Source: Niastella populi (lineage in GTDB: Bacteria > Bacteroidota > Bacteroidia > Chitinophagales > Chitinophagaceae). From it: a stretch of DNA of 64,000 nucleotides. The translations under genes were made by a program, and so were the position numbers. The notes below the pieces were generated by a model. The model searched no databases and was not told the origin of the DNA. It saw only the letters and a program-made list of their open reading frames with translations. Shown piece by piece: positions 1,650-63,059 of the stretch. Every line of letters begins with the position of its first letter. The first letter of the stretch is position 1. The stretch lies in assembly GCF_002078015.1 (NCBI RefSeq), contig NZ_LWBP01000112.1, positions 62,001-126,000 on the forward strand, written 5' to 3'.

Positions 1650-1773
1650 AATATTGAACTGAAGAACATCGAATGTTGAAGTATAATATAGTTTCGTTAT
1701 GTCTTTTGCATTTCACTCGACATTCAACATTGGACATACGATATTCGACATTGAACATTGGATATTCGATATT
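1650..1773. repeat. Paired short-period array (GAATGTTGAAG family)
   Basis: The left arm (1650-1689) carries GAATGTTGAAG-type words. The right arm (1718-1770) carries their reverse complement (ACATTCAACATTGGACAT and similar) in tandem with a period near 9-10. The arms can fold on each other and fill the gap before the next gene. Confidence 0.6.
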
Positions 1774-1796
1774 ATTAAAAAGAACATCGTTTTCAG

Positions 1797-3458
1797 ATGA
1801 ATAAACAATTTCGAAAAACAGTTTTCTTTATCAGTGGTTGCTTTTTTGGTGTTGCTGCAGCACAGGCACAGGAGCCCAATAAAGGGAAAACCATCGATGT
1901 AACCTCTACATTCAAACCGGTATTACGGGAAGCTTCAAAGATCAATTTCAATGCAACCGAGCCTGCAGTCGACACCACAAAACCCAGGCTCAATTACAAT
2001 ATTCCGGCGCAGAATTTATTTTTTACCTATCAGCCCGCAGGCGTACACCCGGTGGCTTTGAAGGTTGATTCAATGAATGCCTGGCAATCGAGCAATTACA
2101 TAAAAGCGGGTATAGGTAACATTCATCAGCCATTTGTAAAGGCAGGCTTTAGTTTTGGCGATGGCAGACAAACCTTCTTTAACCTGTTTGCCAATCACTA
2201 TACGTCGAAGGGCGAATTGCCTTTTCAGAAGAACAGCCAAACCAGTGTAGCGGCAGCAGGTACATATAAAACCACAAAGAACCTCGAGTGGAATGCCGGT
2301 TTGGGTTTCCGCAGCGATGATTATTATTTGTACGGCTTCAAACCATCTGATCTGCCATATACCAAGGAGGATCTGCGGCAACGTTTTCAAACCATTGAAG
2401 GAAAAATTGATTTTCGTAATCTTAGTTCAACCGAGTTTGGGCTCAATTACCATCCCAGTATAAAAGTGAGCAGCTTTAGCGACAAACACGATCCTAAGGG
2501 AAGTGAGATCAACACGGTAGTGAACCTGCCGCTGGAAAAGACTTTTGGCGATGATGAGAAGTTTGCGTTCAACATTGGCGCCACAGCCGACCTCACGAAT
2601 TACAAACGCGACGATAATAACAAGTTAAATATCAAGAATAACTTATACCAGATTGCGACAGCGGTGTCGGTTAAGACAAACAACTTTAACCTGCACGCAG
2701 GTATTTTGCCCAGCTGGGATCAGAAGAAGTTTCACATGTTGCCGAATATTATGGCGGATATCACTACCGGCGACCGGCAGTTTACTTTGCAGGTGGGTTG
2801 GGTAGGGTACTACCAGAAGGGATCGTACCAGCGTTTTGCATCCATTAACCCATGGCTGGCGCAGCCCGATACATTGATTAATACGCGGGCTATCGATCTG
2901 TATGGCGGAATAAAAGGTTCACTGGGCGACCATTTTACCTATTCAGCCAAACTGGGCATAGTTACTTATCACGACATGCCCCTGTTCGTAAACGATTCGA
3001 TCGATGGCGGCAAATCATTTAAAATACGGTATGAACCAAAGATGAACGACCTGCAATTGCATAGTGAGCTGGGATATACCGTTGGCGAAAAGTTCAGTGC
3101 AACGGCCGGTTTAACAATCAATAATTATTTCAACCTCGAGCGCGAAAAAGACGCTTATGGGCTGATACCGGTAGAGCTGAATGCCGCCATTCGCTGGCAG
3201 CTGATAAAAGACCTGTTCTTTTACAGTGAACTGTGGGCCTGGACCAAGCCAAAATATCTTACCAAAGATGGCGACAGCTTCAAAGGCGACAATGCATTGG
3301 ACCTGAATGCCGGCGCCGAATTCAGGATAACAAAGAACTTCAACCTGTGGGTACAACTTAATAATTTGTTAAATGACAGGTACCAGCGCTGGAACCAGTA
3401 CGAAGTGTTCGGCTTCAGCATTATGGGTGGTATAACTTATTCATTTAATACGAAATAA
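1797..3458 (+). CDS. TonB-dependent-receptor-like outer-membrane beta-barrel protein
   Basis: 553 residues. It begins with a signal peptide ending near AAAQAQ, so it is exported. A short conserved stretch (KTIDVTSTFKPVLREASKINFNA) is followed by many alternating amphipathic strands with aromatic girdles, and the C-terminal strand (FGFSIMGGITYSFNTK) ends like a Bacteroidota outer-membrane barrel. LNAGAEFRITKNFNLWVQLNNLLNDRYQRW is typical of the last strands of TonB-dependent receptors. At 553 residues it is much shorter than a SusC and shows no clear plug domain, so it may be a porin-like relative, not an active importer. It lies 155 bp after the TPR gene and probably forms an envelope unit with it. 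Confidence 0.7.
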   Translation: MNKQFRKTVFFISGCFFGVAAAQAQEPNKGKTIDVTSTFKPVLREASKINFNATEPAVDTTKPRLNYNIPAQNLFFTYQPAGVHPVALKVDSMNAWQSSNYIKAGIGNIHQPFVKAGFSFGDGRQTFFNLFANHYTSKGELPFQKNSQTSVAAAGTYKTTKNLEWNAGLGFRSDDYYLYGFKPSDLPYTKEDLRQRFQTIEGKIDFRNLSSTEFGLNYHPSIKVSSFSDKHDPKGSEINTVVNLPLEKTFGDDEKFAFNIGATADLTNYKRDDNNKLNIKNNLYQIATAVSVKTNNFNLHAGILPSWDQKKFHMLPNIMADITTGDRQFTLQVGWVGYYQKGSYQRFASINPWLAQPDTLINTRAIDLYGGIKGSLGDHFTYSAKLGIVTYHDMPLFVNDSIDGGKSFKIRYEPKMNDLQLHSELGYTVGEKFSATAGLTINNYFNLEREKDAYGLIPVELNAAIRWQLIKDLFFYSELWAWTKPKYLTKDGDSFKGDNALDLNAGAEFRITKNFNLWVQLNNLLNDRYQRWNQYEVFGFSIMGGITYSFNTK

Positions 3459-3580
3459 GGCGGAACGCTTAAGGCTTAAGCTTAACGCTGGTTCCCGTCA
3501 TGAGTGTTTCCCGATCTGACTAAGGCATTCCGAAATTCGGACTGACACGTTCGGCCTTCAGCGTTTAGCTTTTAGCCTGG
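3459..3580. repeat. Paired short-period array (CTTAACGC family)
   Basis: The left arm 3459-3491 has words such as GAACGCTTAAGGCTTAAGC. The right arm 3548-3580 has the complementary CAGCGTTTAGCTTTTAGCC. The palindrome CCGAAATTCGG (3530-3540) lies between them. Confidence 0.55.
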
Positions 3581-5302: not shown

Positions 5303-5310
5303 TGCCGGCA

Positions 5311-5496
5311 ATCGTGAAACGTGAAACGGCAAACGTGAAAGGCTCAAACACGCGCCTAACAGCTATTTTAAAGCTAACTATATTCGGAATTTGCTTACAC
5401 TATGCAGCCTTGTAACCTGAAACCTGGAACTGGCTTTCCCGGTAACCGGAAACTGTTTACCGGTACCCGGTACCCCTGCAACCTGTAACGGTTCCA
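5311..5496. repeat. Short-period arrays (CGTGAAA and TGTAACC families)
   Basis: CGTGAAACGTGAAACGGCAA-type 7-nt repeats (5313-5348) are followed by TGTAACCTGAAACCTGGAAC-type 7-8 nt repeats (5410-5492). They occupy the gap between two convergent genes. No obvious terminator is present. Confidence 0.5.
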
Positions 5497-9299: not shown

Positions 9300-9452
9300 G
9301 GTTGATATGTTGAAATGTTGACAAAGCCTGCCCCGAAGAAGTCGGGGTTGATAGCGGTAATACAGCGCGAAGTGCGATTTAGTCGCGAGGCCGGGAATTC
9401 AGGTCCTTTATCAACGTTATCAACATTTCAACTCCCCCGTCAACCCGTCAAC
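9300..9452. repeat. Paired short-period array (GTTGAAATGTTGAC family) with inner hairpin
   Basis: The left arm GTTGATATGTTGAAATGTTG (9301-9322) is complementary to the right arm (9409-9452, ATCAACATTTCAAC and GTCAACCCGTCAAC). Between them is the hairpin CCCCGAAGAAGTCGGGG (9331-9347), which recurs almost unchanged at 41289. The array separates the sigma factor from its FecR partner. Confidence 0.65.
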
Positions 9453-15801: not shown

Positions 15802-15836
15802 CATGTGGGCTTGTCGGTAAAATGAGGCCGGAACCG

Positions 15837-15977
15837 GATGTAAGAAGTAGGATGTAAGAAGTAAGTAAAAAATAAGAACAGGTAATACGAAGTATTAAGT
15901 CTTAGGTGCGATTTAATGATAAATATTGAAAAATTACTATATGCTTAAATCATACTTCTTACATCTTACTTCTTAAT
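15837..15977. repeat. Paired short-period array (GGATGTAAGAAGTA unit)
   Basis: The 14-bp unit GGATGTAAGAAGTA occurs twice in tandem (15837-15864). Its complement, TACTTCTTACATCTTACTTC, lies at 15953-15972. The arms are about 85 bp apart. Confidence 0.65.
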
Positions 15978-16080: not shown

Positions 16081-17295
16081 ATGAGATCATCTGTATTTGT
16101 TCCTGCTTTATTGTTCAGTGTAATCACCGGCAGTGTTGCCTGTGAAGCCCAAAAGAAAACGGTTTTTAAGGCGAAAGGCCCCCTTTTGCAAACCATACAA
16201 GCGAATTTTGAAGATGGCGCAAAACAATACAAGGTATTGAAAGCGACATTACCACCCGACAGGTTTCCGAAAACCTATTTTCCGCAAACCGGTAAAGCCG
16301 AAACCAGCGGTTCAGGCTGGTGGTGCAGCGGCTTTTATCCCGGCACACTGTTATACCTGTACGAACAAACAGGTGATACTGTGCTATACAACGAGGCGGA
16401 CCGTATACTCGGGGTATTACAGAAAGAACAATATAACAAAACCACCCACGACCTGGGTTTTATGATGTATTGCAGTTTTGGCAATGCCGACCGCATAAAG
16501 CCAAAACCTGAATACAAAGACATTATTGTCAATAGCGCGAAATCGCTCAGTACCCGGTTTAACGAAAAAGTAGGTTGTATAAAATCATGGGATTCGAAAA
16601 AGGAAACCGATTTCCTGGTGATCATCGACAATATGATGAACCTTGAATTGTTGTTTGAAGCAACAAAAGCTACCGGCGACTCCTCTTTCTGGAAAATTGC
16701 CGTTACCCATGCCAATACTACCATGAAGAATCATTTCCGGCCCGATTACAGTTCTTTCCACGTATTGAACTATGATATAACTACCGGTGATGTAAAGGAA
16801 AAGAAAACAGCGCAGGGTTTTGCCGATGCCTCGGCCTGGGCCCGCGGACAGGCATGGGGTTTATATGGCTATGCCGTTTGTTATCGCTATACCAAAGATG
16901 TTCGTTACCTGCAACAGGCGCAGCATATCGCAGCGTTTATTTTATCACACCCTAACCTGCCTGCAAATAAGATCCCTTATTGGGATTTCAATGCACCCGA
17001 TATTCCCAATGCGTTGCGCGATGCTTCTGCTGCCGCTATCATGGCATCTGCATTTATTGAATTGAGCCAGTATACAAAAGGCAAAGAAGCCCGTAAGTAT
17101 ATGCAGGCTGCGGAAACGATGATCACTAATTTATCGACCCCCGAATACAAAGCCGCTGCTGGCACCAATGGCGGTTTTATTTTACAACACGGGGTAGGGC
17201 ATAAACCCGCCGGCACCGAAATAGATGTACCGCTTACTTATGGCGATTATTATTTTATAGAAGCCTGTAAAAGATATAAGGAGTTGGGTAAATAG
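16081..17295 (+). CDS. GH88 unsaturated glucuronyl hydrolase
   Basis: 404 residues from the ATG at 16081, with a signal peptide. The family removes the unsaturated uronic acid left at the non-reducing end of oligosaccharides by polysaccharide lyases. The alpha6/alpha6-barrel motifs are clear: SGWWCSGFYPGTLLYLYEQTGD, HDLGFMMYCSFG with Asp124, IIDNMMNLELLFEA with Asp183, and SAWARGQAWGLYGYA. The two aspartates have nearly the same spacing as the catalytic pair of Bacillus enzymes (Asp88/Asp149). It follows SusD after an array-filled gap and precedes a GH2. No lyase is encoded in the window, so the substrate may be produced by enzymes elsewhere or by other organisms. Confidence 0.9.
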   Translation: MRSSVFVPALLFSVITGSVACEAQKKTVFKAKGPLLQTIQANFEDGAKQYKVLKATLPPDRFPKTYFPQTGKAETSGSGWWCSGFYPGTLLYLYEQTGDTVLYNEADRILGVLQKEQYNKTTHDLGFMMYCSFGNADRIKPKPEYKDIIVNSAKSLSTRFNEKVGCIKSWDSKKETDFLVIIDNMMNLELLFEATKATGDSSFWKIAVTHANTTMKNHFRPDYSSFHVLNYDITTGDVKEKKTAQGFADASAWARGQAWGLYGYAVCYRYTKDVRYLQQAQHIAAFILSHPNLPANKIPYWDFNAPDIPNALRDASAAAIMASAFIELSQYTKGKEARKYMQAAETMITNLSTPEYKAAAGTNGGFILQHGVGHKPAGTEIDVPLTYGDYYFIEACKRYKELGK

Positions 17296-17387
17296 TTGAT
17301 GAGTTGACAAGTTGATAAGAATGAGTGCCAACTCATGGTTTAAAATGCAAAGTTTTTCGTTCGCAGTTTTTAGTTGGTAAGCAGAAT

Positions 17388-17465: not shown

Positions 17466-19292
17466 ATGAGGTCATTATATTTAACCGTTATTATAACAGT
17501 AGCCAGTACCATCGTGTACGCACAAACTCCATTGATAACAAATATCGCCGGTCGAAAAACAACCAGTCTCAACGGTAAGTGGCAATATATTATTGATCCG
17601 TATGGAACGGGGTTCTACGATTACCGTTTTCTCGAAAGAAAAGAAAACGACCGCGAGGCCTACTGGAATACGGATGTGCCCGAAAACAAGACCGATCGCA
17701 AAGAACATAAGTTCACTGATGAATATACCCTGAACGTGCCCGGCGACTGGAACTCTCAGGCGGAAAAATTCCTGTATTACGAAGGCATAGTATGGTATAA
17801 GAAGTCGTTTGATTTTACAAAAGCCAACTCCACAGATAAAGTATATCTGTACTTTGGCGCTTCCAACTACGAAACCGACGTGTATCTCAACGGCAAAAAG
17901 CTGGGTAAACACAAAGGCGGTTTTACGCCCTTTAATTTTGAAGTGCCCGATTCGGTGCTGAAAGCAACCGGTAACTACCTGGTGGTGAAAGTAGACAATA
18001 CCCGCCACAAAGATGAAGTGCCTACTGTGAATACCGACTGGTGGAATTATGGCGGCATTACCCGCGATGTGCAACTGGTTGAAGTGCCACCGGCATTCAT
18101 CAGGGATTTTACGCTGCAGGTACAAAAAGGCGCTGCGCTAAAAACAATGAAGAATGTTCCGGTAGAAGGGTGGGTGAATGTAAAGGACTGGCAAAACACC
18201 CGCGAGGTGACTGTAGAACTGCCTGAATTAAAGATCAAAAAGATATTCCCTGTAACGGGCGAACGGGTAAACCTGCGGTTTAATTTGCCTGCTATGCAGT
18301 TATGGTCGCCCCAAACCCCAAAGCTATATACGGTGGTAGTAAGCAATGGCGCCGATCGTATAGAAGAAAAGATCGGGTTCCGCACTATTGAAGTGGCGGG
18401 AAAGCAGGTATTGCTGAACGGTAAGCCGTTGTTCATGCGCGGTATTTGTATGCATGAAGAAATACCGCAACAGATCCGCCGCGCATACAGTAAACAGGAT
18501 GCCCTGCAATTACTGGGGTATGCAAAAGAGCTTGGGTGCAATATGGTGAGGCTGGCGCATTACCCGCATAATGAAAACATGTCCCGTACAGCCGATTCAA
18601 TGGGCATATTGGTATGGTCGGAGATCCCGGTTTACTGGACGATCGATTTCACCAGTGCCGAAGTGTTTAACAAAGCACGTACACAACTTACTGAAATGAT
18701 AACCCGTGACCGGAACCGGGCCAGCATCATCATTTGGTCGGTTGGTAATGAAACGCCGGTTAAGCCCGCGCGTACTGCTTTTATGCGCAACCTTATCAGT
18801 GCGGCGAAGTCGCTCGATTCAACCCGGTTGGTATCGGCGGCGCTGGAGGTGAATTACCAGGCGGGCGTAAGTAAGATTGATGACCCGCTGGGAGAATTTG
18901 TAGATATCGTTTCTTTCAATGAATACCTGGGCTGGTATGCAGGCCTGCCCGACAGATGCCGTACCGCCCAATGGGAGTTTGCTTATGATAAACCTTTCTT
19001 CATTAGCGAAACAGGCGCTGAAACGCTGTATGGCTTTCATGGCGATTCGCTTACCCGCTGGAGCGAAGAATACCAGGAATGGTATTATCGCGAGCAGGTA
19101 GCCATGTTCAAACGCATGCCTGAGAATTTTGCCGGGCTCTCGCCCTGGCTGCTCTGCGATTTCCGTTCGCCCCGCCGTAACAACCAAACCTTCCAGGAAG
19201 GCTGGAACAACAAAGGGCTTATAGATCAGCAGGGGAGAAAGAAGAAGGCCTTTTATGTGTTGAAGGGTTATTATGAAGAAAAGGGTTTATAA
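17466..19292 (+). CDS. GH2 glycosidase, probable beta-glucuronidase
   Basis: 608 residues with a signal peptide. It has the GH2 order: sugar-binding jelly-roll (about 30-210), immunoglobulin-like domain (about 215-305), TIM barrel (about 310-600). The acid/base Glu429 is in WSVGNETP and the nucleophile Glu515 in PFFISETGAET. Asn581-x-Lys583 (WNNKGL) matches the NxK motif that contacts the glucuronate carboxylate in characterised beta-glucuronidases and is absent from beta-galactosidases, which favours glucuronidase. With the GH88 upstream this points to a uronic-acid-rich glycan as target of locus 1. The GH2 family is promiscuous, so the exact linkage is inferred. Confidence 0.88.
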   Translation: MRSLYLTVIITVASTIVYAQTPLITNIAGRKTTSLNGKWQYIIDPYGTGFYDYRFLERKENDREAYWNTDVPENKTDRKEHKFTDEYTLNVPGDWNSQAEKFLYYEGIVWYKKSFDFTKANSTDKVYLYFGASNYETDVYLNGKKLGKHKGGFTPFNFEVPDSVLKATGNYLVVKVDNTRHKDEVPTVNTDWWNYGGITRDVQLVEVPPAFIRDFTLQVQKGAALKTMKNVPVEGWVNVKDWQNTREVTVELPELKIKKIFPVTGERVNLRFNLPAMQLWSPQTPKLYTVVVSNGADRIEEKIGFRTIEVAGKQVLLNGKPLFMRGICMHEEIPQQIRRAYSKQDALQLLGYAKELGCNMVRLAHYPHNENMSRTADSMGILVWSEIPVYWTIDFTSAEVFNKARTQLTEMITRDRNRASIIIWSVGNETPVKPARTAFMRNLISAAKSLDSTRLVSAALEVNYQAGVSKIDDPLGEFVDIVSFNEYLGWYAGLPDRCRTAQWEFAYDKPFFISETGAETLYGFHGDSLTRWSEEYQEWYYREQVAMFKRMPENFAGLSPWLLCDFRSPRRNNQTFQEGWNNKGLIDQQGRKKKAFYVLKGYYEEKGL

Positions 19293-19428
19293 GTTATTCA
19301 GTTGTTCAGTTATTGAGTTATTCAGTTGTTCAGTTATTGAGTTTGTAAGTCTTCTATCAATGGCGCAAAGGCGCCTGTGAACTATTGACAATTAATAGCG
19401 AGTCCCGAACTGAACAACTGAACAACTT
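19292..19428. repeat. Paired short-period array, exact 24-bp duplication
   Basis: A 24-bp unit beginning AGTTATTCAGTTG is duplicated exactly in tandem (19292-19339), itself built from 8-nt words. The complementary GAACTGAACAACTGAACAAC follows at 19407-19426. Confidence 0.7.
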
Positions 19429-19638
19429 GTATTTCCCGGGTTTTGTATTCAAAAAATAAATATCTCATCGCAGCCGCTTCCCAAACATCGGCAACGTTCA
19501 CTTTGGCATGGTTCTTTCAAAGGTATGAATGACGTTAATTTTCTGCAGAAAGTAATCTCTCACTTAAAGTAACTACTGAACGTACAGGTTTCAGGGCTTG
19601 TGAAGTTTGAGTTTTGTGAACCGGTAATTCTTTTTGTT

Positions 19639-19683
19639 TTGCCCAATGCCTGTCGTCTATTGCCCATTGCCCATTGCCTGTTG
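19639..19683. repeat. Short-period array (ATTGCCC family)
   Basis: Tandem words of the type TTGCCCATTGCCCATTGCC with 7-8 nt period. No complementary arm is obvious. The rest of the 888-bp gap between the GH2 and the Nudix gene holds a small possible gene and a terminator. Confidence 0.5.
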
Positions 19684-19765
19684 ATTATCCCTCCATTGCA
19701 CTTGTTTTAACCTGAATATTATGGCCGCACATGCGGGTTGTACCCTTTTATAATTTTCGCTAACT

Positions 19766-19924
19766 ATGAGATACGTTATTATGCTGTGTTGTTCTTTCAT
19801 GATCATCAGGAACGGCTTTGCCGTAAGATCATCTCCAAAGATTCCGGAAAATAAAAATTCACCTGGCATACAACTGCAGGTGAATGTTCGTCCCATAATG
19901 GCGCCGGCCATCAGATTATATTAA
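19766..19924 (+). CDS. Possible 52-aa secreted peptide
   Basis: ATG at 19766 with a hydrophobic, Cys-containing leader (MRYVIMLCCSFMIIRNGFA) followed by about 32 mostly polar residues. I recognise no family. A promoter-like TATAATTTTCG lies just upstream, and a strong plus-strand terminator lies at 20144-20178 with no other plus-strand gene between, so something is transcribed here. It could be a small peptide gene or only a non-coding transcript. Confidence 0.3.
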   Translation: MRYVIMLCCSFMIIRNGFAVRSSPKIPENKNSPGIQLQVNVRPIMAPAIRLY

Positions 19925-20060
19925 AGTTCACAGTTCACAGTTCATAGTTAATAGTTTATGTTTTATGGTTGGCGTTCGGCTTAATCGCAAGCTGCAAATA
20001 ACGGCGAGTTATGAAAGTCAGACAACAACAAACCAAAAACAATAAACCATAAACTAAAAG
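19925..20060. repeat. Paired short-period array (GTTCACA/GTTTATG family)
   Basis: The left arm 19925-19971 reads AGTTCACAGTTCACAGTTCA and onward to GTTTATG words (7-nt period). The right arm 20024-20060 reads AACAATAAACCATAAAC, its complement. Confidence 0.6.
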
Positions 20061-20143
20061 ATATTATGGTTTACGGGAAAGGCAAACAATGGGATGTCGC
20101 AGTTGGAATAGCAACTCTCCTCCAGTTATGTCCTGTTTTTTAG

Positions 20144-20178
20144 GGTGGTTCCTCCTCCGGGGAGCCGCCTTTTTTTTT
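20144..20178 (+). terminator. Rho-independent terminator, plus strand
   Basis: GGTGGTTCC pairs with GGAGCCGCC (nine pairs, two G-U) around an 8-nt loop, followed by nine T. It points away from the GH2 gene and ends next to the stop of the convergent Nudix gene. Confidence 0.75.
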
Positions 20179-20180
20179 GC

Positions 20181-20885: not shown

Positions 20886-21020
20886 ATGAAAGTATATCGG
20901 TCCATTTATACTACTAAGATCCGGAAATCAGAATAGTGGAAACGGATAGAATTTTGGGTTAAAGTAATAAGAAAAACTGAACAATGGTATTACCGTGAGA
21001 TGAAGATAGCTATTTTTTTT

Positions 21021-29239: not shown

Positions 29240-29431
29240 TTGATAAGTTGACGAGTTGATAAGTTGACGAGTTGACGAGTTAACGAGTTGACAAGGCAAT
29301 TGAAAAGCTGATAAAGGTGATAGAGGGAAATACAGTTCTAAGTTTTTAGTTTTACGTTCTTGGTTTTTAATGCGAAACCCGCTTTTAATGGTAACCTGTC
29401 TATAGTTCGGGTTTCAGGTTTCGGGTTCCGG
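29238..29431. repeat. Short-period arrays filling the gap after GH26
   Basis: A regular 8-nt array of GTTGATAAGTTGACGA words runs from 29238 to 29294 (seven units). Further arrays of AGTTTTTAGTTTTACG (29335-29369) and GGGTTTCAGGTTTCGGG type (29405-29431) follow. No clear complementary arm. The rest of this 323-bp gap shows nothing else. Confidence 0.6.
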
Positions 29432-38075: not shown

Positions 38076-38156
38076 TTCACAGTTCACAGTTCATAGTTTG
38101 CAGTTCATAGTTCGCAGTTCATAGTTCATAGCTCGTAGTTAATAGTTGATGGTTTA
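38073..38156. repeat. Short-period array, left arm (GTTCACA/GTTCATA)
   Basis: About eleven 7-nt units of the type GTTCACAGTTCACAGTTCAT begin at the MFS stop codon. The reverse complement lies at 38733-38799, beyond the four-helix-bundle gene. Confidence 0.7.
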
Positions 38157-38173: not shown

Positions 38174-38629
38174 TTAGTTGATTGTTAATGGGTTATTGTT
38201 TGAACCCGAAGAGTTGTTATTGTTCTTGTTGTTATTACGGTTTTTGAATTTTAGTCCTTTTTGGCTGCTTGCCTGGATATAGTTAATTAGCCCAAAGATA
38301 ATCTTCCTGATCTCATTGCATAAAAAGTACAATTCATCAAACTGTATTTTATTAATATACTTACGATCTAAAATGCGGTATAGTTGTGATTGGCATTCGG
38401 AAGCAGAGCCCAATGAAACGGTAAGGAATTGAATGAATTCATTGTTTCCCCCTCTGCCAAAACCTTCTGCTATGTTGTCCATTATTGAACCACTGGAGCC
38501 ATTGATCTGATCTTTTAACTTATAGTCTTTTGCAAGGTCTGTTGTTGTAGTAAGCGTTTGAATCTTTGAGCATAGTACACGTGCTTTTTGCCAGGCTGTA
38601 ATTTCTTCAAATGTGTTGAATGTAGCCAT
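38174..38629 (-). CDS. Four-helix-bundle protein (S23/bAvd-like)
   Basis: 151 residues. The body matches the S23 intervening-sequence family: FEEITAWQKARVLCSKIQTLT, KDQINGSSGSIMDNIAEGFGRGGNNEFIQFL, SLGSASECQSQLYRILD and LCNEIRKIIFGLINYI. Relatives occur in 23S rRNA intervening sequences, and the fold is shared with Avd of diversity-generating retroelements, where it is a basic nucleic-acid-binding pentamer. No reverse transcriptase or template repeat is found here. The last 25 residues are almost only Asn, Ser, Lys and Gly, encoded by DNA that looks like continued array sequence. The gene lies between two inverted array arms. Confidence 0.85.
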   Translation of the reverse strand: MATFNTFEEITAWQKARVLCSKIQTLTTTTDLAKDYKLKDQINGSSGSIMDNIAEGFGRGGNNEFIQFLTVSLGSASECQSQLYRILDRKYINKIQFDELYFLCNEIRKIIFGLINYIQASSQKGLKFKNRNNNKNNNNSSGSNNNPLTIN

Positions 38630-38732: not shown

Positions 38733-38799
38733 TAAACTATGAACTGTGAACTATGAACTGTGAACTATAAACTGTGAACTGTGAACTGTGAACTGTGAG
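38733..38799. repeat. Short-period array, right arm (CTATGAACTGTGAA)
   Basis: About nine 7-nt units of the type ACTATGAACTGTGAAC, the reverse complement of the array at 38073-38156. It ends 7 bp before the stop codon of the FAD oxidoreductase. Confidence 0.7.
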
Positions 38800-39989: not shown

Positions 39990-40721
39990 ATGATGAAAAA
40001 AATTATCCAATTATTATCCTGTGTAATCCTGTTTTCCGGCTGTGAGCATTCCCAACACATTATGAAGGCGCTGGAGCCTTATGCCGTCGGTGCCAATGGC
40101 GGGTTAACGTCAAATGAAATTGCTTCCGGCTTGAAACAAGCGCTTGAAGTAGGCGCTCAAAACTCTTCAAGCCAGCTTTCGTCCCTCGATGGCTTTTTTA
40201 AAAATGCCGCTATTAAGATCTTATTACCGCCCGAAGCGCAAAAGGTTGAAAAAACATTGCGCGATCTGGGCATGAGCAGCCTGGTTGATAAAGCCATTTT
40301 ATCGGTAAACCGGGCGGCAGAGGATGTAGCAAAATCAGCCGCGCCCATATTTATCGACGCCATCAAAAGCATGACCATTCAGGATGCGTTGGGCATTTTA
40401 AAGGGCGGTGATTTTGCAGCAACCAATTTCCTGAAATCAAAAACCACTGCTTCATTGACGGCTGCATTTAAACCGGTTATCGATAACTCGCTTTCAAAAG
40501 TGGGCGCCACGAAATACTGGGGCGATGTGTTCAATGCCTACAACAGGTTCGCTACCAATAAGATCAATCCCGATCTGAGTGGTTTTGTAACCGAAAAAGC
40601 CATCGGCGGCATCTTTTACCAGGTAAGTCTGGAAGAACAGAAGATCCGTAAAGATCCGGTTGCACGCGTTACCGACCTGTTGAAGAAAGTGTTTGGAAGT
40701 AAAGAAGCGCAGGGACAATAA
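39990..40721 (+). CDS. DUF4197 lipoprotein
   Basis: 243 residues from the ATG at 39990; the frame opens at a TTG 27 bp earlier but the ATG starts the signal. The lipobox is FSGC. The body matches DUF4197: GLTSNEIASGLKQALEVGAQNSSSQLSSLDGFFKNAAIKILLPPEAQKVEKTLR and AFKPVIDNSLSKVGATKYWGDVFNAYN with DLSGFVTEKAIGGIFYQVSLEEQKIRKDP near the end. The family is periplasmic and of unknown function. A strong terminator lies about 90 bp downstream. Confidence 0.88.
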   Translation: MMKKIIQLLSCVILFSGCEHSQHIMKALEPYAVGANGGLTSNEIASGLKQALEVGAQNSSSQLSSLDGFFKNAAIKILLPPEAQKVEKTLRDLGMSSLVDKAILSVNRAAEDVAKSAAPIFIDAIKSMTIQDALGILKGGDFAATNFLKSKTTASLTAAFKPVIDNSLSKVGATKYWGDVFNAYNRFATNKINPDLSGFVTEKAIGGIFYQVSLEEQKIRKDPVARVTDLLKKVFGSKEAQGQ

Positions 40722-40725
40722 AAAA

Positions 40726-40807
40726 ATCGAATGTTGAAGTTTGAATAATGAATGTTGAAGTAAGGAATACTTCGACATTGACCATTCGATATTCATTATT
40801 CAATATT
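40726..40807. repeat. Paired short-period array (GAATGTTGAAG family)
   Basis: The left arm AATCGAATGTTGAAG...AATGAATGTTGAAG (40726-40762) and right arm CTTCGACATTGACC...ATTCAATATT (40769-40807) are complementary and separated by only 6 bp. The same word family appears at 1650-1773. Confidence 0.65.
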
Positions 40808-40813
40808 TATAGG

Positions 40814-43055: not shown

Positions 43056-44192
43056 ATGAGAAAGTTTATTAAGGCTATTGTAGTTGTCATTCTGTCGATT
43101 ATTGTCGCTTTTTCTGCATATGCCGTCATTTCAGGCCGCACTTATCTTTTTGAGGCGGTATGGTACAACTTTGCCGATATTGACGATTATAAAATATTCT
43201 CCAATAACACCGTGGTCACCGGTGAACCGCAGCCCTGGGTTATTTCCACAGGGTATAACAGGAACCCGCTGCCGGTTGCATTGAAGAAAATGCTGGAAGA
43301 ACTGGAAACCGTTGCAGTGCTGGCCATCAGGAATGATTCGGTTTTGTATGAATTTTATTGGGATGGCTACAGCGATTCTACCTTATCCGGTTCTTTTTCC
43401 ATGGCCAAAAGCATAACCAGCCTGCTGGTGGGTGCTGCCCTTAAGGAAGGAAAGATCAAATCGCTTGAGGAACCGGCAGGCAATTACCTGCGGGAATTCA
43501 AAACCGGCGAAAAAGCAAAACTGCGTATTATCGATCTGCTTACCATGAGCAGTGGCAGCAACTGGGATGAGTCATATGCCAACCCGTTTTCGGTTACTAC
43601 CGAATTGTATTACGGGCATAACATTTACAAAACAGCTACCGGGGTTTCCATTATACACCAGCCGGGCACCCTGCACGAATACAAATCGGGCGATACGCAA
43701 CTACTGGGGCTCATATTGGAAAAGGCAACCGGAAAATCGCTCAGCGCATATGCTTCGGAGAAACTGTGGCAACCGATGGGGGCCGAACATGCAGCATTAT
43801 GGAGCACCGACCGCATAGGTGGAAGCGAAAAGGCCTATTGTTGCTTTAATTCCAACGCCCGCGATTTTGCCCGTTTGGGCAAACTGATGCTCGACAGCGG
43901 CCGCTGGAAGGGCAATGAAATAATTCCCCTGGACTACTTTCACCAATCGGTAAAGCCCTGTATGATCCCCGATGCCACCGGCAAACCCTGTACGTATTAT
44001 GGCTATCAGTGGTGGATAGTTCCCAGCCGGCCCGAAATATTTTATGCCCGCGGCATTCTGGGACAATACGTGATTGTTATTCCTTCCAAAAAAACAATAA
44101 TTGTGCGGCTTGGGAAGAAGCGCTCCGACAGGCGGATAGACAATGCGCCGGCAGAGGTAGATGCACTTATTCGTTGGGGAATGAGTTTTTAA
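43056..44192 (+). CDS. Serine hydrolase, class C beta-lactamase fold
   Basis: 378 residues with one N-terminal signal or anchor helix (FIKAIVVVILSIIVAFSAYAVI). The penicillin-binding fold has its nucleophile in Ser115-Met-Ala-Lys118 (SGSFSMAKSITS), the second motif Tyr-x-Ser in EYKSGDTQLLG, and GILGQY in place of the KTG motif. LRIIDLLTMSSGSNWDE is typical of the Beta-lactamase family of esterases and D-peptidases. Substrate unknown; it need not give drug resistance. Confidence 0.88.
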   Translation: MRKFIKAIVVVILSIIVAFSAYAVISGRTYLFEAVWYNFADIDDYKIFSNNTVVTGEPQPWVISTGYNRNPLPVALKKMLEELETVAVLAIRNDSVLYEFYWDGYSDSTLSGSFSMAKSITSLLVGAALKEGKIKSLEEPAGNYLREFKTGEKAKLRIIDLLTMSSGSNWDESYANPFSVTTELYYGHNIYKTATGVSIIHQPGTLHEYKSGDTQLLGLILEKATGKSLSAYASEKLWQPMGAEHAALWSTDRIGGSEKAYCCFNSNARDFARLGKLMLDSGRWKGNEIIPLDYFHQSVKPCMIPDATGKPCTYYGYQWWIVPSRPEIFYARGILGQYVIVIPSKKTIIVRLGKKRSDRRIDNAPAEVDALIRWGMSF

Positions 44193-44194
44193 GG

Positions 44195-44420
44195 GTTTGT
44201 AGTTTATGGTTTGTGGTTGCTTTTTATTCAGGCAACCCCAACGGTTTTTATCTGTCTGAAAACCGGTCAGTAAGCTGTTGTTAAACCTCTACTAAGGCGG
44301 GAAACATCCACAAACGACAAACAACAAACCTTTAACTGCCTGAACCAAAGGCGGTAAGCTATTGTTAAACCTCTACAAAGCCCGGAAATAACCACAAACC
44401 ACAAACCGTAAACAATAAAC
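44195..44420. repeat. 74-bp direct repeat with paired short-period arms
   Basis: A segment containing TAAGCTGTTGTTAAACCTCT (44271) recurs with about 15-20% differences 84 bp on (44355, TAAGCTATTGTTAAACCTCT). Each copy ends in an ACAAAC-rich array. The GTTTGTAGTTTATGG arm at 44195-44217 is complementary to the last array (44390-44420). Confidence 0.6.
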
Positions 44421-44428
44421 TCTTTTCA

Positions 44429-44452: not shown

Positions 44453-45190
44453 ATGAAACTGGATTTACTGGCCATAGGCGTTCATCCTGATGATGTGGAA
44501 TTAAGCTGTTCGGGAACGATCCTTAATGAAATAAAGCGGGGCAGGAAAGCCGGGATCCTCGATCTTACACAAGGGGAACTGGGCACCCGGGGAACCATTG
44601 AAACCCGGTATGCCGAGGCTGCCAAAGCCGCTGAAATAATGGGTGTGCAGGTGCGTGCCAACCTGAAAATGCGCGATGGCTTTTTTAAGAACGATGAGGA
44701 GCACCAGCTGCAGCTGATACGGGCCATCAGGACCTGGCAGCCCGAAGTAGTGCTGGCGAATGCGCTGGAAGACCGTCACCCCGATCATGGCCGTGCCGGC
44801 CAACTGATAGCCACAGCCTGTTTTTTATCGGGTTTGGCGAAAATTGAAACAAAAGATGAGAACGGGAACCCGCAACAACGCTGGCGCCCTAAATACATAC
44901 TGCATTATTTGCAGGACTGGTATCATGAGCCCGACCTGCTCATTGATATCTCCGATGTGTTCGAGCAGCGCATGGAAGCCGTAAAAGCATATTCAACGCA
45001 ATTCTTCAATAAAGAGAATGGAGGCGACGGGCCGCAAACCTATATTTCCACACCTGATTTCCTCGATAGCGTAATTGGCCGTGCCCGGATGATGGGAAAA
45101 CGTATCGGCGTAAAATATGCCGAAGGGTTTATTTGTGAGAAGAAGATAGGGATCAGGAATTTAGACGCTTTATTACAGGTTGAAACTTAG
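44453..45190 (+). CDS. bshB1: Bacillithiol biosynthesis deacetylase BshB1
   Basis: 245 residues. LmbE/PIG-L fold zinc deacetylase that removes the acetyl group from GlcNAc-malate in bacillithiol synthesis. The zinc site is His11-Pro-Asp13-Asp14 (GVHPDD) with the later HPDHGRAG. ILDLTQGELGTRGTIETRYAEAAKAAEIMGV and RPKYILHYLQDWYHEPDLLIDISDVFEQRMEA are typical of the BshB1 branch. bshA and bshC are not in the window. Many Bacteroidota make bacillithiol. Confidence 0.9.
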   Translation: MKLDLLAIGVHPDDVELSCSGTILNEIKRGRKAGILDLTQGELGTRGTIETRYAEAAKAAEIMGVQVRANLKMRDGFFKNDEEHQLQLIRAIRTWQPEVVLANALEDRHPDHGRAGQLIATACFLSGLAKIETKDENGNPQQRWRPKYILHYLQDWYHEPDLLIDISDVFEQRMEAVKAYSTQFFNKENGGDGPQTYISTPDFLDSVIGRARMMGKRIGVKYAEGFICEKKIGIRNLDALLQVET

Positions 45191-45260
45191 TTGACGGGTT
45201 GAATAGTTAACGAGTTGACAAGGCAAAAGTTAACAAGTCGATAAGGTTACAGGTCAACAA
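45189..45260. repeat. Short-period array (GTTGACGGGTTGAATAG family)
   Basis: Eight-nt words GTTAACGAGTTGACAAG run from the bshB1 stop into the gap. The last copies change to AACAAGTCGATAAGG. Confidence 0.5.
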
Positions 45261-49886: not shown

Positions 49887-50104
49887 GTTTGAGCTTAACG
49901 CTTAATGCCGAACGCTTAACGCAAAATACAACTGAAGGATAAAAGCCGAAGCAGGGCAAATACGAATACAGTTGAAAATTAACGCTGAATGCCCAAAGCA
50001 CAGGCTGTCGGGAATTACGGCTTATAACCTTGCGGGTAGGCAGTAGCAGACTAGTCGGAATTTCGCGAGCAAGCCTTAAGCGTTAGGCGTTCAGCGTTCA
50101 GCAT
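49887..50104. repeat. Paired short-period array (CTTAACGC family)
   Basis: The left arm AGCTTAACGCTTAATGCCGA (49891-49922) and right arm GCCTTAAGCGTTAGGCGTTC (50073-50104) are complementary; the same word family occurs at 3459-3580. They flank about 150 bp of otherwise featureless sequence. Confidence 0.6.
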
Positions 50105-50933: not shown

Positions 50934-51196
50934 GTATTTGATTGTTTTTGGGAAGTTACAAATTAATGATCATTCAATAAAGAGGATCAATCGTTTGCAT
51001 TAATTTTCATGGAAGTGACCGGATATTTTCCCTTAATTTACAAACCGGCAATCGGCAGTCGGCAATGCAGACCGCCCTGCAATTGGCTGGCCTACAATTC
51101 GGGTGCAACCATTTCGCGGCTAACTCCGACTTTGGGGTTATTCACGATTGCCGATTCACGATTCACGAAAAAACATCCTCAAAGAATAAGATTAAT

Positions 51197-53690: not shown

Positions 53691-53869
53691 GAAATTATGT
53701 CTCAGGCGGCAGCGGGTTTTGAAATGTTTGGTGGGGTTTATGGTTTCGTTAACAGGAATTCCGGTGCGGCAGCCTGCTCAGGCACAGAAATAGTGAATGT
53801 GATAAGGTAATTATCCGATAATCCCGACTATATCGGGACAAGTTGTGATAATTCAATAATCCTGCAGAG

Positions 53870-56380: not shown

Positions 56381-56992
56381 ATGGGGGAAAAAAATATTGT
56401 TGCCCGGGAATGCTACGAACAACTACTGGTGCATCTTCAGCGATTCTCGGAAATAAGCCGTGGATCGGTGGAGCAATTGATACCTTACCTTGAGATCCGC
56501 CGTTTTGAGAAAAAGAAGAGACTGGTTAACCAGGGCGAAATGGAGGATTACCTGAACGTAGTTATCAAAGGCCTTGTTCGTAAATACGTGCTTTCGCCCA
56601 TTCGGGGCGAGGTTACCCTGCAACTGGCCACCGAGGGGCATATCATCCAGTCTGAGATCTCCTTTCATCACCGCGTTCCCTCTGAAGTCATCATTCAAAC
56701 ACTAGAGCCTACGGTGCTGGTTTCAATACGGCACGACCGCATGCAGGAGGCGCTCGAAAAAGTGCCCGAAGCCGAAGTCCTGGGCCGCGCTATCATTATG
56801 CAGATGTTCATAAAAAAGGACGCCCGCTATTTCGATCAGCTAAACACTTCTACCCGCGACCGCTTTCTCGAATACATCAACAACCATCCTCATATGTTGC
56901 AGCGGGTGCCGCAGAAGGTCCTTGCTTCTTACCTCAATATTAAACCGGAAACGTTTTCGAGGTTAAAACACCTGTTACTTCAGAAGAAGTAG
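56381..56992 (+). CDS. Crp/Fnr-family regulator, second of a tandem pair
   Basis: 203 residues with the same layout as the upstream gene: sensor barrel (LEIRRFEKKKRLVNQGEMEDYLNVVIKGLVRKYV ... IQSEISFHHRVPSEVIIQTLEPTVLVSI) and a recognition-helix region LASYLNIKPETFSRLKHLL that is identical to its neighbour, while the sensor parts differ widely. This suggests duplication with shared DNA target and diverged signal. The two are 9 bp apart and co-transcribed. Confidence 0.88.
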   Translation: MGEKNIVARECYEQLLVHLQRFSEISRGSVEQLIPYLEIRRFEKKKRLVNQGEMEDYLNVVIKGLVRKYVLSPIRGEVTLQLATEGHIIQSEISFHHRVPSEVIIQTLEPTVLVSIRHDRMQEALEKVPEAEVLGRAIIMQMFIKKDARYFDQLNTSTRDRFLEYINNHPHMLQRVPQKVLASYLNIKPETFSRLKHLLLQKK

Positions 56993-57103
56993 TTTATGGT
57001 TTATCGTTTATTGTTTATGGTTGCTTCGCGGTTCGAACAACTAAAATAATTGCGCGAGCCTGGAAGTGCAAGAACAATAAACCAAAAACAATAAACAATA
57101 AAC
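56991..57103. repeat. Paired short-period array (GTTTATG/CATAAAC family)
   Basis: The left arm GTTTATGGTTTATCGTTTAT (56993-57023, 7-nt units) starts at the Crp stop codon; the right arm ACAATAAACCAAAAACAATA (57073-57103) ends just before the stop of the convergent transporter gene. Confidence 0.65.
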
Positions 57104-57105
57104 TG

Positions 57106-59647: not shown

Positions 59648-59651
59648 ACGT

Positions 59652-59791
59652 GAGATTGCTGATTTTGGGATTTCTGATTTCGAGATTTCCTTGAGTTTAG
59701 CATGCTGACAGATCGCAAAACCCTGAAATTCCTTTTGAGCTTAGCCAAATAAACAAATCTTAAAATCCTTTAATCAGAAATCTGAAATTCT
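59652..59791. repeat. Paired short-period array in the mntR leader
   Basis: The left arm GCTGATTTTGGGATTTCTGA (59658-59690) and right arm AATCAGAAATCTGAAATTC (59772-59790) are complementary. They lie between the mntR promoter and start codon, so they would be part of its 5' leader of about 165 nt. Confidence 0.5.
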
Positions 59792-60990: not shown

Positions 60991-61173
60991 CAACTTCATG
61001 CAAGCGTGCTAACGAGCATTAGTTCAGATTGTTTTAACTTTCGGCATAACCACATCGCTTAATCCCGTCGAATTGGAATTATACGTTATATTCGCCCCGT
61101 TTTTATAGCATCTTTGTACCATTGACAGGCTATTTATATATAAGTACCTGGAAGTTTAAAATGAACAGTGTAT

Positions 61174-62829
61174 ATGAGTTTTACCAATTTTACAGTTCCT
61201 TACCCGATAGAGGGAAAATACAGTAAACGAGTAGCTTATTTTTCAATGGAGTATGCAGTGCATCAACCATTGAAGATCTATAGCGGAGGTTTGGGGTTTT
61301 TATCAGGATCGCATTTGCGCAGCGCATATGAGCTGCAACAAAATATGGTGGGCATTGGCATTTTGTGGAAGTATGGCTATTACGATCAGGCGCGTAACCA
61401 GGACCACACCCTGCAGGTAACCTGGCTCGAAAAGAACTATCATTTCCTGGAAGATACCGGTATTAAATTTCAGATAACCATTCACGATCACCTGGTATGG
61501 GTGAAGGCATATTATCTGAACCCGGAAACATTCAAAACAGCGCCGCTTTTTTTGTTGAGCACCGACCTGCCTGAAAACGATCACGTTTCACAAACCATTA
61601 CTCATCGCTTATACGATGCCAACGTGGCTACCAAAGTTGCCCAGTTCATATTACTGGGTGTTGGCGGCGCCAAGCTGCTGGATGAATTAGGGTTCAATCC
61701 CGACCTATACCATTTGAACGAAGCGCATGGCGTATCGTCGGTGTTTTACCTGTACAAGAAATTCGGCAACAAGGTTGAAGAAGTAAAGAAGCGCCTGGTG
61801 TTCACCACGCATACGCCTGAAGAAGCCGGAAATGAAAAGCACGATATACACCTGTGTCATAAGATGAGTTATTTCTGCGGCCTGAGCATCGACGAAGTAC
61901 GCAAACTCACCGGCATGCACGACGATCTGTTCAATCACTCCCTGGTAGCATTGCGTTTTGCGCACCTGGCCAACGGGGTATCGAAACTACATGGCGAAGT
62001 ATCGCGAAGCATGTGGGGAAAGCATGAAAATGTTTGTCCGATCATATCAATCACCAATGCACAGAACTGGCGCTATTGGGCCGATAAACAATTGTACCGC
62101 GCCGCTGAAGAGGGCAATGACAGCTGGTGGGATGATCGCAAGAAATACCTCAAACGCCGGTCGTTTGATATAGTAGCCGATCAAACGGGTAAAATATTCA
62201 ACCCGAATGTATTTACCATTGTGTGGGCGCGCCGTTTTGCCGGTTACAAAAGAGCAGAGCTGCTAACGCGTGATAAAGCACGATTTGAAAAATTATTGAA
62301 CAATACCAAACATCCCGTGCAGATCATTTGGGCCGGTAAACCCTACCCGATGGATTACCCCGCTATCAATGATTTCAATAGCCTGGTTCATTTAAGCAAA
62401 AATTATAAAAACGTGGCGGTGCTTGTCGGTTATGAACTGGCGTTATCGAAGCGGATGAAGCAGGCTGCGGATATCTGGTTAAATAACCCGCGCGTTCCCC
62501 GCGAGGCTTCGGGTACCAGTGGTATGACGGCTGCCATGAACGGCGCCATCAACTTCTCCACTTCCGATGGCTGGATTCCCGAGTTTATTGATCAGGGGCA
62601 TAATGGTTTTGTGATTTTCCATCCCGATTATGGCAAAATGAGCGTACAGGAACAGGACCAATACGACCTGGAAAAAATGTATGACATTCTCGAGAATGAA
62701 ATTCTGCCTATGTATTACGAGCGGTACGATACCTGGCGCACGATCGCCAAAAACGGAATGCGCGATGTTCGCTTCCAGTTCGATTCGGGCAGAATGGCGA
62801 ATGAGTACTACGAGTTGTTGTATAAATAG
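61174..62829 (+). CDS. GT35-like alpha-glucan phosphorylase, PLP lysine replaced
   Basis: 551 residues from the ATG at 61174. It matches the short alpha-glucan phosphorylase group (TIGR02094-like): VAYFSMEYAVHQPLKIYSGGLGFLSGSHLRSAYELQ, TTHTPEEAGNEKHD, ITNAQNWRYW and VWARRFAGYKRAELLTRD. In phosphorylases the cofactor lysine follows EASGTSGM or EASGTGNM; here the residue is Thr452 (EASGTSGMTAAMNGA, codon ACG at 62527). Without it PLP cannot form its Schiff base, so it may be a glycosyltransferase of another kind or inactive. It is also shorter than the 700-850 residues of most members, lacking the usual N-terminal extension. A role in glycogen metabolism is inferred. Confidence 0.8.
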   Translation: MSFTNFTVPYPIEGKYSKRVAYFSMEYAVHQPLKIYSGGLGFLSGSHLRSAYELQQNMVGIGILWKYGYYDQARNQDHTLQVTWLEKNYHFLEDTGIKFQITIHDHLVWVKAYYLNPETFKTAPLFLLSTDLPENDHVSQTITHRLYDANVATKVAQFILLGVGGAKLLDELGFNPDLYHLNEAHGVSSVFYLYKKFGNKVEEVKKRLVFTTHTPEEAGNEKHDIHLCHKMSYFCGLSIDEVRKLTGMHDDLFNHSLVALRFAHLANGVSKLHGEVSRSMWGKHENVCPIISITNAQNWRYWADKQLYRAAEEGNDSWWDDRKKYLKRRSFDIVADQTGKIFNPNVFTIVWARRFAGYKRAELLTRDKARFEKLLNNTKHPVQIIWAGKPYPMDYPAINDFNSLVHLSKNYKNVAVLVGYELALSKRMKQAADIWLNNPRVPREASGTSGMTAAMNGAINFSTSDGWIPEFIDQGHNGFVIFHPDYGKMSVQEQDQYDLEKMYDILENEILPMYYERYDTWRTIAKNGMRDVRFQFDSGRMANEYYELLYK

Positions 62830-63059
62830 TTGACAGGTTGATGGGTTGATAGTTGATACAGGGGAATACAGTATTTAAGAAAAATTGTTAAAATAATATT
62901 AAGGATCATCAGCCGGTTGGCGGATGGTCCTTTTTTATGAATAGCCCTCGCTGGCTCCTGGTCTATACTTTGCGGCGAAGGTTCAGGCTGGCATTTGTTC
63001 ATTCTATACAACAGAAATCCTTTATCAACTCTTTCAACTATATCAACTTTTCAACTTTA
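62827..63059. repeat. Paired short-period array flanking a terminator
   Basis: The left arm GTTGACAGGTTGATGGGTTG (62829-62859) and right arm TATCAACTCTTTCAACTATA (63022-63058) are complementary, 160 bp apart, with the terminator between. Confidence 0.6.
62903..62936 (+). terminator. Terminator of the glucan phosphorylase gene
   Basis: GGATCATCAGCC pairs with GGCGGATGGTCC (mostly paired), followed by six T. Confidence 0.75.

What the first reader, a model, noticed from the sequence alone, without database searches (positions are those of the whole stretch)
1650..63059. Paired short-period tandem arrays fill most intergenic gaps
More than twenty gaps carry degenerate tandem words of 7-8 nt (locally 10-14), a different word per gap: GTTGACAA, GTTCACA, GTTTATG, GGATGTAAGAAGTA, CTTAACGC and others. 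In at least twelve (for example 1650, 3459, 9300, 15837, 19292, 19925, 38073, 40726, 49887, 56991, 59652, 62827) the array is followed, after a spacer, by its own reverse complement, so the gap folds into a long imperfect hairpin. Many begin at or within a few bases of a stop codon, and several coexist with ordinary terminators. This is not explained by genes, REP elements or CRISPR. They may be generated by template switching or slippage, act as 3' mRNA structures, or be a nonautonomous repeat family. I know of no name for them.
Basis: partly seen in the sequence, partly recalled or inferred. Interest (0 to 1): 0.75.

Follow-up and report, generated by a model that had tools for sequence, protein, structure and literature searches.

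The report
S23-protein elements ended by repeat arrays
The short repeat arrays between genes look like the two ends of a small genetic element whose only gene, when present, makes a little-understood four-helix protein (S23p), which would tie several unexplained kinds of bacterial repeats together.

Summary
The arrays are real: 21 of 34 window gaps carry one beyond shuffles. In a larger Niastella sample the unit is nearly always 7 or 8 nt (270 of 297), and arrays tend to meet their own reverse complement in the same gap (124 of 289; 2 with shuffled remainders). They are not 3' mRNA structures: stem mismatches show no G.U excess (114 G.T: 108 A.C), while terminator-like stems in the same gaps do (88:23). 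The window holds the key. The array at 38073 pairs not within its gap but across gene 38174-38629 (23S_rRNA_IVP, S23p) with the array at 38735. Such flanking pairs occur at 41 of 44 Niastella S23p genes against 20 of 1322 other genes, at 17 of 29 in named Bacteroidota against 0 of 287, and at 15 of 17 S23p loci on plasmids, mostly cyanobacterial. Nostoc plasmids show filled, gene-less and empty versions of the same sites. Best reading: array-ended S23p elements plus gene-less derivatives. How they move is inferred. Cyanobacterial heptamer repeats, Xanthomonas GGGAATC arrays and the 23S rRNA IVS may belong with them (not tested).

The parts
38073..38147 (+). left array (W, TAGTTCA/GTTCACA, period 7, about 10.7 copies), begins in the TAG stop of 36879-38075; left arm of the S23p element (paired stretch 38077-38140)
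   Evidence: TRF; cross-gene pairing score 48
38174..38629 (-). S23p / 23S_rRNA_IVP gene (PF05635, TIGR02436), 151 aa; S23p genes with arrays lie at what looks like the same place in six other Niastella genomes
   Evidence: E=1.1e-31
38735..38798 (-). right array (W', AACTGTG, period 7, 9.1 copies), next to the TAA stop of 38806-39939(-); right arm of the S23p element
56990..57104 (.). gene-less element, word GTTTATG; arms 56991-57022 / 57073-57104
   Evidence: stem 22, 0 of 200 shuffles
15836..15976 (.). gene-less element, word GGATGTAAGAAGTA; arms 15841-15863 / 15953-15975; orthologous gaps have arrays, often of other words
19291..19428 (.). gene-less element, word AGTTATTC/AGTTGTTC (8 nt); arms 19291-19311 / 19408-19428
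49893..50102 (.). gene-less element, word CTTAACGC family (best period 7); arms 49893-49922 / 50073-50102
44191..44424 (.). gene-less element, word GTTTRTG; arms 44191-44228 / 44387-44424
   Evidence: stem 22
40719..40811 (.). gene-less element, word GAATGTTGAA; arms 40719-40762 / 40768-40811
9301..9432 (.). gene-less element, word GTTGACAA-like; best stem 9309-9324 / 9417-9432
19921..20056 (.). gene-less element, words AGTTCACA then GTTTATG; arms 19952-19970 / 20038-20056
   Evidence: not tested alone against shuffles
59651..59790 (.). array GAGATTTCTGATTTC with weaker partner 59763-59790; divergent gap
   Evidence: array significant, stem 12 of 200
1664..1773 (.). array TCGACAT (1714-1773) with weak upstream partner 1664-1680
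   Evidence: stem 12 of 200
3457..3576 (.). array of the CTTAACGC family (3550-3576) with weak partner 3457-3475
   Evidence: array 2 of 200, stem 9 of 200
62827..63060 (.). GTTGAC-type W words after the stop, W' (TCAACT) array near 63025-63048
   Evidence: array 2 of 200, stem 24 of 200
29238..29295 (+). unpaired W array AGTTGACA (8 nt, 7.2 copies) starting in the TAG stop
17294..17319 (+). unpaired W array AGTTGACA starting in the TAG stop
45188..45218 (+). unpaired W array starting in the TAG stop
5310..5335 (+). array CGTGAAA
42780..42809 (+). array TTTACGAT-type, next to the start of the minus-strand gene
   Evidence: 2 of 200
51145..51168 (.). array CGATTGC/CGATTCA (W'-type), upstream of or in the start of the plus gene

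Best explanation
The arrays are the ends of a family of small genetic elements. The full element is [W array] - S23p gene (PF05635, about 120-150 aa, four-helix bundle) - [W' array], W' being the reverse complement of W. W is a locus-specific 7-8 nt word, usually G-richer than its complement, that often starts at or near the stop codon of the upstream gene. The many paired or single arrays without a gene are derivatives that lost S23p or were copied without it. SHOWN: co-location of array pairs with S23p genes in Bacteroidota, Cyanobacteriota and one alphaproteobacterial plasmid; filled, gene-less and empty states of the same sites; joint change of both arms between species; low dN/dS of S23p at one locus; no RNA-type mismatch pattern. 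INFERRED: the element is inserted as DNA by host replication or repair enzymes, with S23p (no catalytic domain known) binding the arms or the hairpin they form; slippage and template switching within the hairpin then expand the arrays, let the word drift and keep the arms alike.
For: S23p flanks: 41 of 44 genus loci with inverted pair score 16 or more vs 20 of 1322 other genes, Fisher 1e-59 (46 of the genus's 73 S23p matches were looked at, 2 dropped for short flanks); 14 of 25 in the rest of the order; 17 of 29 in named Bacteroidota, one locus per genome, vs 0 of 287 genes; 15 of 17 plasmid S23p loci (15 cyanobacterial, 1 Riemerella, 1 Azospirillum; misses L299 and L303) vs 3 of 26 neighbours (several loci share a strain or a site). 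Empty sites: hyp-hyp locus filled in 3 (one S23p interrupted) and empty in 3 plasmids with 3 nt between the genes; next gap filled in L298 and closed in L371/L372; TraM locus filled in 2, gene-less pair in 1 (stem 23, 0 of 200 shuffles), empty in 2; nrdB-nrdA filled vs empty. In Niastella the gap of L242 holds the S23p element in 3 species, a gene-less pair with another word in 4, and no pair in 2. Both arms change together at the S23p locus of 7 species; S23p dN/dS 0.09-0.22 in the 8 of 15 pairs where dS is not saturated. Order W..W' 60:0; left arm G>C in 35 of 41, 12 of 14, 17 of 17 and 15 of 15 paired S23p loci. 13 of 43 gene-less loops have a similar loop elsewhere in the sample, 0 of 43 control pieces. 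Arrays of period 7/8 outside the genus: 12 of 174 gaps in genomes with S23p, 0 of 98 without (closeness to S23p genes not checked).
Against: 3 of 44 genus loci (L256, L278, L292) and 10 of 29 named loci show no clear pair (including Chitinophaga rupis, C. sp. GbtcB8 and Pedobacter sp. BS3). S23p copy number does not track array density across 50 genomes (Spearman 0.04, p 0.79), and G013 with 14 S23p had 0 arrays in 8 gaps of one stretch. The 12/174 vs 0/98 contrast leaves out one period-11 array in an S23p-less genome after the fact; with it p is 0.02. At window 38 kb S23p looks vertically inherited, so jumps are rare. In 6 of 41 genus and 2 of 14 other loci the left arm is C>G. No insertion was observed happening; no consistent target duplication was found; at the TraM locus filled and empty records also differ in about 40-50 nt beside the element. 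The cas6-cas4 comparison (L306/L366) is not a clean empty site.
Confidence: 0.75

Rival explanations
1. Pure mutation: slippage makes tandem arrays in unconstrained DNA after stop codons and template switching copies them inverted; S23p is a passenger that inserts into hairpin loops.
For: Multi-unit duplications in arrays (24-nt repeat at 19292; (GAACTGTAAACTGT)n array in G001); symmetric G.T/A.C mismatches; SbcCD, which cleaves DNA hairpins (recalled), has only weak hits in the 10 genus genomes; template switching makes and mends hairpins (PMC8794818, abstract seen).
Against: Fixed order 60:0, shared vocabulary, empty sites without arrays where the filled site has arrays plus S23p, S23p with array pairs in genomes with few other arrays in the stretches seen. 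Most sampled family genomes lack SbcCD yet have few arrays.
Confidence: 0.15
2. RNA hairpins at mRNA 3' ends (stabilisers or terminators), selected on the transcript.
For: Position right after stop codons; arrays rarer in divergent than in convergent gaps (own genome 16 of 93 vs 31 of 80).
Against: No G.U excess: 114:108 in codirectional array stems, 38:53 and 14:12 in S23p stems, against 88:23 in terminator-like stems. W arrays also lie in divergent gaps, nearer the gene edge behind them (27 of 34). T tracts after the stems were not examined.
Confidence: 0.05
3. Retroelement: S23p, like the DGR protein Avd (likeness recalled), serves a reverse transcriptase that copies the element.
For: Avd-S23p structural likeness (recalled, not tested); RVT_1 found in all 10 genus genomes, the one in G008 below the cut-off.
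Against: Genomes with 4-9 S23p matches and no RVT_1 match, e.g. G019, G029, G033, G035, G043, G053.
Confidence: 0.05

Closest known systems
23S rRNA intervening sequence (IVS) elements with S23p ORF (Coxiella, Leptospira; PMC4990558, passages seen)
   Same: S23p ORF inside an inverted-repeat hairpin; tandem heptamers (GACAGAT) of variable number just upstream of the ORF; long suspected to be a selfish element
   Different: Here the elements lie between protein genes, arrays form both arms, words differ per locus, and gene-less copies are many; excision from RNA by RNase III not tested here
G-rich heptamer repeats GGGAATC (Xanthomonas) and GGGGA(C/T)T (Nostoc PCC 7120) (PMC4692102, section 10 and passages seen)
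   Different: One word family per genome in that study, few inverted pairs in Nostoc there; read as G-quadruplex repeats generally not found with mobile elements; the term S23 does not occur in its text
Cyanobacterial STRR heptanucleotides (Calothrix; name recalled, Calothrix heptanucleotides mentioned in PMC4692102)
   Same: Tandem heptamers, dispersed
   Different: Pairing and S23p not described there as far as I know (recalled)
TAACTGA repeats of Beggiatoaceae, Cyanobacteria, Bacteroidetes (PMC4679880, abstract, sections 10 and 24 and passages seen)
   Same: Mostly intergenic heptamer arrays, patchy in the same phyla
   Different: One word, in the main strain mostly upstream of starts, interpreted as regulatory; S23 does not occur in its text
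MITEs / REP elements (recalled)
   Same: Gene-less inverted-repeat derivatives of an element with a gene
   Different: Ends here are tandem arrays with drifting words, not a fixed terminal sequence; no transposase between the arms of the loci read

Membership tests
S23p/IVS element | S23p (PF05635/TIGR02436) ORF | tested here: met
   window 38174-38629; absent from the gene-less copies
S23p/IVS element | ORF enclosed by complementary ends | tested here: met
   41 of 44 genus, 17 of 29 named, 15 of 17 plasmid loci
S23p/IVS element | located in a 23S rRNA helix | tested here: not met
   the window's S23p and the annotated plasmid loci lie between protein genes (the Azospirillum stretch has no annotation); other loci not checked for rRNA; so not filed as an IVS
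S23p/IVS element | excised from RNA by RNase III | not testable with these tools
   -
STRR / heptamer SSR | tandem degenerate 7-nt units, dispersed, intergenic | tested here: met
   148 of 297 arrays period 7, but 122 have period 8
REP/BIME | 20-40 nt conserved palindrome plus RAYT transposase | not tested
   no fixed sequence is seen; RAYT not searched
MITE/IS | fixed TIR, target duplication, transposase in the parent | tested here: not met
   arms are arrays with drifting words; no consistent target duplication at the few sites compared; between the arms of the S23p loci read lies the S23p gene
CRISPR | repeat-spacer array | tested here: not met
   head-to-tail units of 7-8 nt without spacers
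RNA terminator/3' hairpin | G.U tolerated over A.C in stems | tested here: not met
   vs 128
DGR/Avd retroelement | needs a reverse transcriptase | tested here: inconclusive
   RVT_1 absent from several S23p-bearing genomes, but other RT models not searched

The most novel reading that the evidence does not exclude
S23p is the only protein of a widespread class of mobile DNA element without transposase or reverse transcriptase. It is spread by host replication or repair through a DNA hairpin made of 7-8 nt tandem arrays. Cyanobacterial STRRs, Xanthomonas and Nostoc heptamer repeats, many Bacteroidota intergenic arrays and rRNA IVSs are all its full or gene-less forms.
Probability: 0.45. Interest if true: 0.95.

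Novelty: new variant of a known kind. Interest (0 to 1): 0.85.

Why it matters
S23p ('23S rRNA-intervening sequence protein', 'four helix bundle protein') has no known function (PMC4990558, passage), although 48 of the 59 genomes of one search (own genome included) and 35 of 50 other Bacteroidota genomes carry it above the family cut-off. Heptamer arrays in cyanobacteria and Xanthomonas have been described without a source gene (PMC4692102, passages). If the two belong together, both puzzles become testable: S23p should bind the arms, and its removal should stop insertion or homogenisation of the arrays. A DNA element with no recognised recombinase would also be unusual.

Tried and rejected
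RNA hairpin selection: disfavoured by the G.U test with a positive control in terminator-like stems. Reverse transcriptase dependence: disfavoured. SbcCD loss as sole cause: SbcD over the cut-off and strong SbcC hits occur together in 10 of 59 genomes and in none of the 10 of this genus, but most array-poor family members sampled lack them too; at most permissive. Inner motif AATACAG as a mark of S23p elements: 7 of 44 left flanks vs 84 of 1322 controls, too weak. Copy number of S23p vs array density: no correlation. Microhomology at the stop codon: for 88 arrays that start inside a stop codon, matches to the next unit are mostly above background (0.28) up to about 11 nt upstream, so arrays reach a little into coding ends, but there is no sharp priming signature. 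cas6-cas4 pair L306/L366: the unfilled record has other DNA there, so not used as an empty site. Structure of the window S23p: single-sequence model, mean pLDDT 59.9, too weak for a fold search; PDB relatives by sequence are 2gsc and 2rld. A tRNA positive control for the mismatch test failed to parse and was replaced by terminator-like stems. Literature: the ten searches listed no paper that I could see joins S23p to intergenic tandem arrays; listings only, apart from four papers opened in part, and the library lacks most subscription papers, so this is weak.
Full report
Setting. The window is G000:C112:62001-126000 of an 8.6 Mb genome. Ten genomes of the genus are held.

The observation. 21 of 34 window gaps carry a tandem array that at most 2 of 200 dinucleotide shuffles reach. 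In 464 kb of the genome 60 of 256 gaps free of N score 16 or more; 1 of 255 coding pieces does, and shuffles reach it only in one further gap that is a run of N. Some of those 20-kb stretches were chosen near known arrays; in 20 stretches of G005 spread along its contig and chosen blind the share is 41 of 199 gaps at score 12. Of 297 arrays in 979 gaps, 148 have period 7 and 122 period 8; 27 have other periods. Arrays match the reverse complement of the rest of their own gap far more often than controls (124 of 289, against 32 direct, 30 complement, 14 reversed, 20 other gap, 2 shuffled).

Polarity and place. I named W for twelve word families after looking at sequences behind stop codons, so the second count below is partly by construction; the first is not. 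W precedes W' in 60 gaps and follows it in none. Within about 25 nt after a stop codon W is found 166 times and W' 5 times. Single arrays follow the same tendency, strongly behind stops (83:7 and 65:10), less behind starts (73:35 and 15:5). Arrays near stops start mostly within the stop codon or the next ten bases, and TAG is enriched (67 of 194 against 108 of 565, p 2e-5).

Not RNA. A stem selected as RNA on the sense strand should tolerate G.U but not A.C. Array stems in codirectional gaps have 114 G.T and 108 A.C mismatches (100 stems). S23p stems have 38:53 in the genus and 14:12 outside. Terminator-like stems found in the same gaps under equal penalties have 88:23 (216 stems).

Turnover. 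The gap after 14185-15801 could be read in seven congeners; by eye all seven have array words, six with a partner, and the words differ. Gaps 20886-21123 and 22003-22234 are conserved in length and largely free of arrays in eight congeners (one AACGC run in G003).

The gene inside. L049, and then the window, showed W and W' on the two sides of one small gene. Window gene 38174-38629 is a 23S_rRNA_IVP (S23p) protein (E 1e-31). Its flanking arrays pair over 64 nt with score 48. PF05635 has 73 matches in the ten genus genomes. I examined 46 of them; two had flanks too short; 41 of the other 44 have an inverted pair of score 16 or more within 300 nt, against 20 of 1322 other genes, of which 12 have arrays in both flanks. 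Outside the genus: 14 of 25 and 17 of 29 named Bacteroidota loci, one per genome, control 0 of 287. A search of 72,556 plasmid records gave 19 with S23p; 15 were read and 2 further Nostoc loci later; 15 of 17 have the pair, control 3 of 26, all three beside S23p elements. The 17 are not all independent: three come from one Nostoc strain, and L300/L370 and L310/L374 are shared sites. The 15 include Nostoc, Calothrix, Pseudanabaena, Anabaena, Geminocystis, Stanieria, Aulosira, Azospirillum and Riemerella; Stanieria and Riemerella are at the threshold. Words are again local: AGGGAAC, TAGGGAG, GGTGACA, TAGGGTG.

Empty, full and gene-less sites. On Nostoc plasmids one pair of genes is 3 nt apart in L371, L372 and L373 and holds array-S23p-array in L310, L374 and L376 (in L376 the S23p gene is interrupted by further DNA). 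L298 instead has the insertion in the next gap, which is closed in L371 and L372. At the TraM locus L300 and L370 are full, L369 has paired arrays of related words with a similar left junction but no gene (stem 23, 0 of 200 shuffles), and L367 and L368 have neither (stems 6 and 4). nrdB and nrdA are separated by an S23p element in N. edaphicum and not in Calothrix NIES-4105. In Niastella the L242 gap is full in 3 species (own, G005, G003), has a gene-less pair of other words in G001, G002, G006 and G007, and no pair in G004 and G009; G008 could not be read. Short repeats at junctions (TTCTA at one locus) are not consistent, so I claim no target duplication.

Evolution. S23p genes of seven species lie beside the same conserved block as the window's (judged from coordinates). 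In each both arms carry similar variant words (for example AGTTCCGA in G005, a 14-nt word in G009, 8-nt AAGTTATT in G004). In six of them S23p shows dN/dS 0.09-0.22 in the 8 of 15 pairs where dS could be computed; in 7 pairs dS is saturated; a second locus gave 0.11. G007's reading frame looks shifted near its start, and G006 has an internal stop; neither was altered.

Gene-less copies are in part dispersed copies: 13 of 43 loops find a similar loop in the 0.86 Mb sample, 0 of 43 control pieces do. Some of these hits are short (21-25 nt) and may include array sequence.

Mechanism. I infer a DNA process. S23p carries no known catalytic domain, and an RVT_1 reverse transcriptase is missing in several genomes with S23p genes. 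Host replication or repair must then do the chemistry, most simply by template switching at a hairpin, which is reported to make and mend such stems (PMC8794818, abstract). S23p of X. campestris forms a toroidal homopentamer (stated in PMC4990558, passage). Its role as hairpin or arm binder is a guess. The G-rich strand mostly runs into the element from both sides, as if each arm had been laid down from a 3' end entering the gap; this is a suggestion only.

Known relatives. The Coxiella IVS has S23p within a 28-bp inverted-repeat stem and two or three tandem heptamers before the ORF (PMC4990558, passages). Xanthomonas GGGAATC repeats lie preferentially within 50 bp after stops on the sense strand and form 70 inverted pairs in X. 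campestris (PMC4692102, section 10 and passages); the S23p structure 2gsc is XCC0516. I did not test whether that gene is flanked by them.

Limits. Gene calls come from a simple codon model of mine, not a standard caller. Stems were ungapped. Association with S23p is strong; mobility rests on a handful of sites; the step from S23p to the making of arrays is not shown.

Noticed in passing
ten Niastella genomes G000-G009: Only weak SbcC and SbcD hits: SbcD over the cut-off and strong SbcC hits occur together in 10 of 59 genomes searched, none in this genus (G008 is 61% complete). Could permit long DNA hairpins to persist.
   Followed up: partly
window 9331-9347, 41289-41305, 53823-53838; L076 10538: GC-rich REP-like palindromes (CCCCGAAGAAGTCGGGG, CCCACCGAAGCTTTAGCGAAGGCGGG) lie inside or beside arrays (positions); possibly a second repeat family that inserts into the first.
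   Followed up: no
window 40814-40837 and 41325-41348: Two similar terminator-like hairpins on either side of small ORF 40843-41094, complementary to each other across it (score 24; positions).
   Followed up: no
L056 (G001), gap orthologous to window 19293-20180: A run of (GAACTGTAAACTGT)n several hundred bases long: recent expansion of one array.
   Followed up: no
L302, L306: S23p genes sit between cas6 and cas4 on two cyanobacterial plasmids; on L306 a type I-D cas1 follows.
   Followed up: partly
L376 (Nostoc N6 plasmid): The S23p gene here is interrupted by a further inserted stretch with array-like words at its end (by eye); left as found.
   Followed up: no
L334 (G024, no S23p match): A period-11 array (CCTTAAAGCAT) in a genome without S23p, a different kind of repeat.
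   Followed up: no
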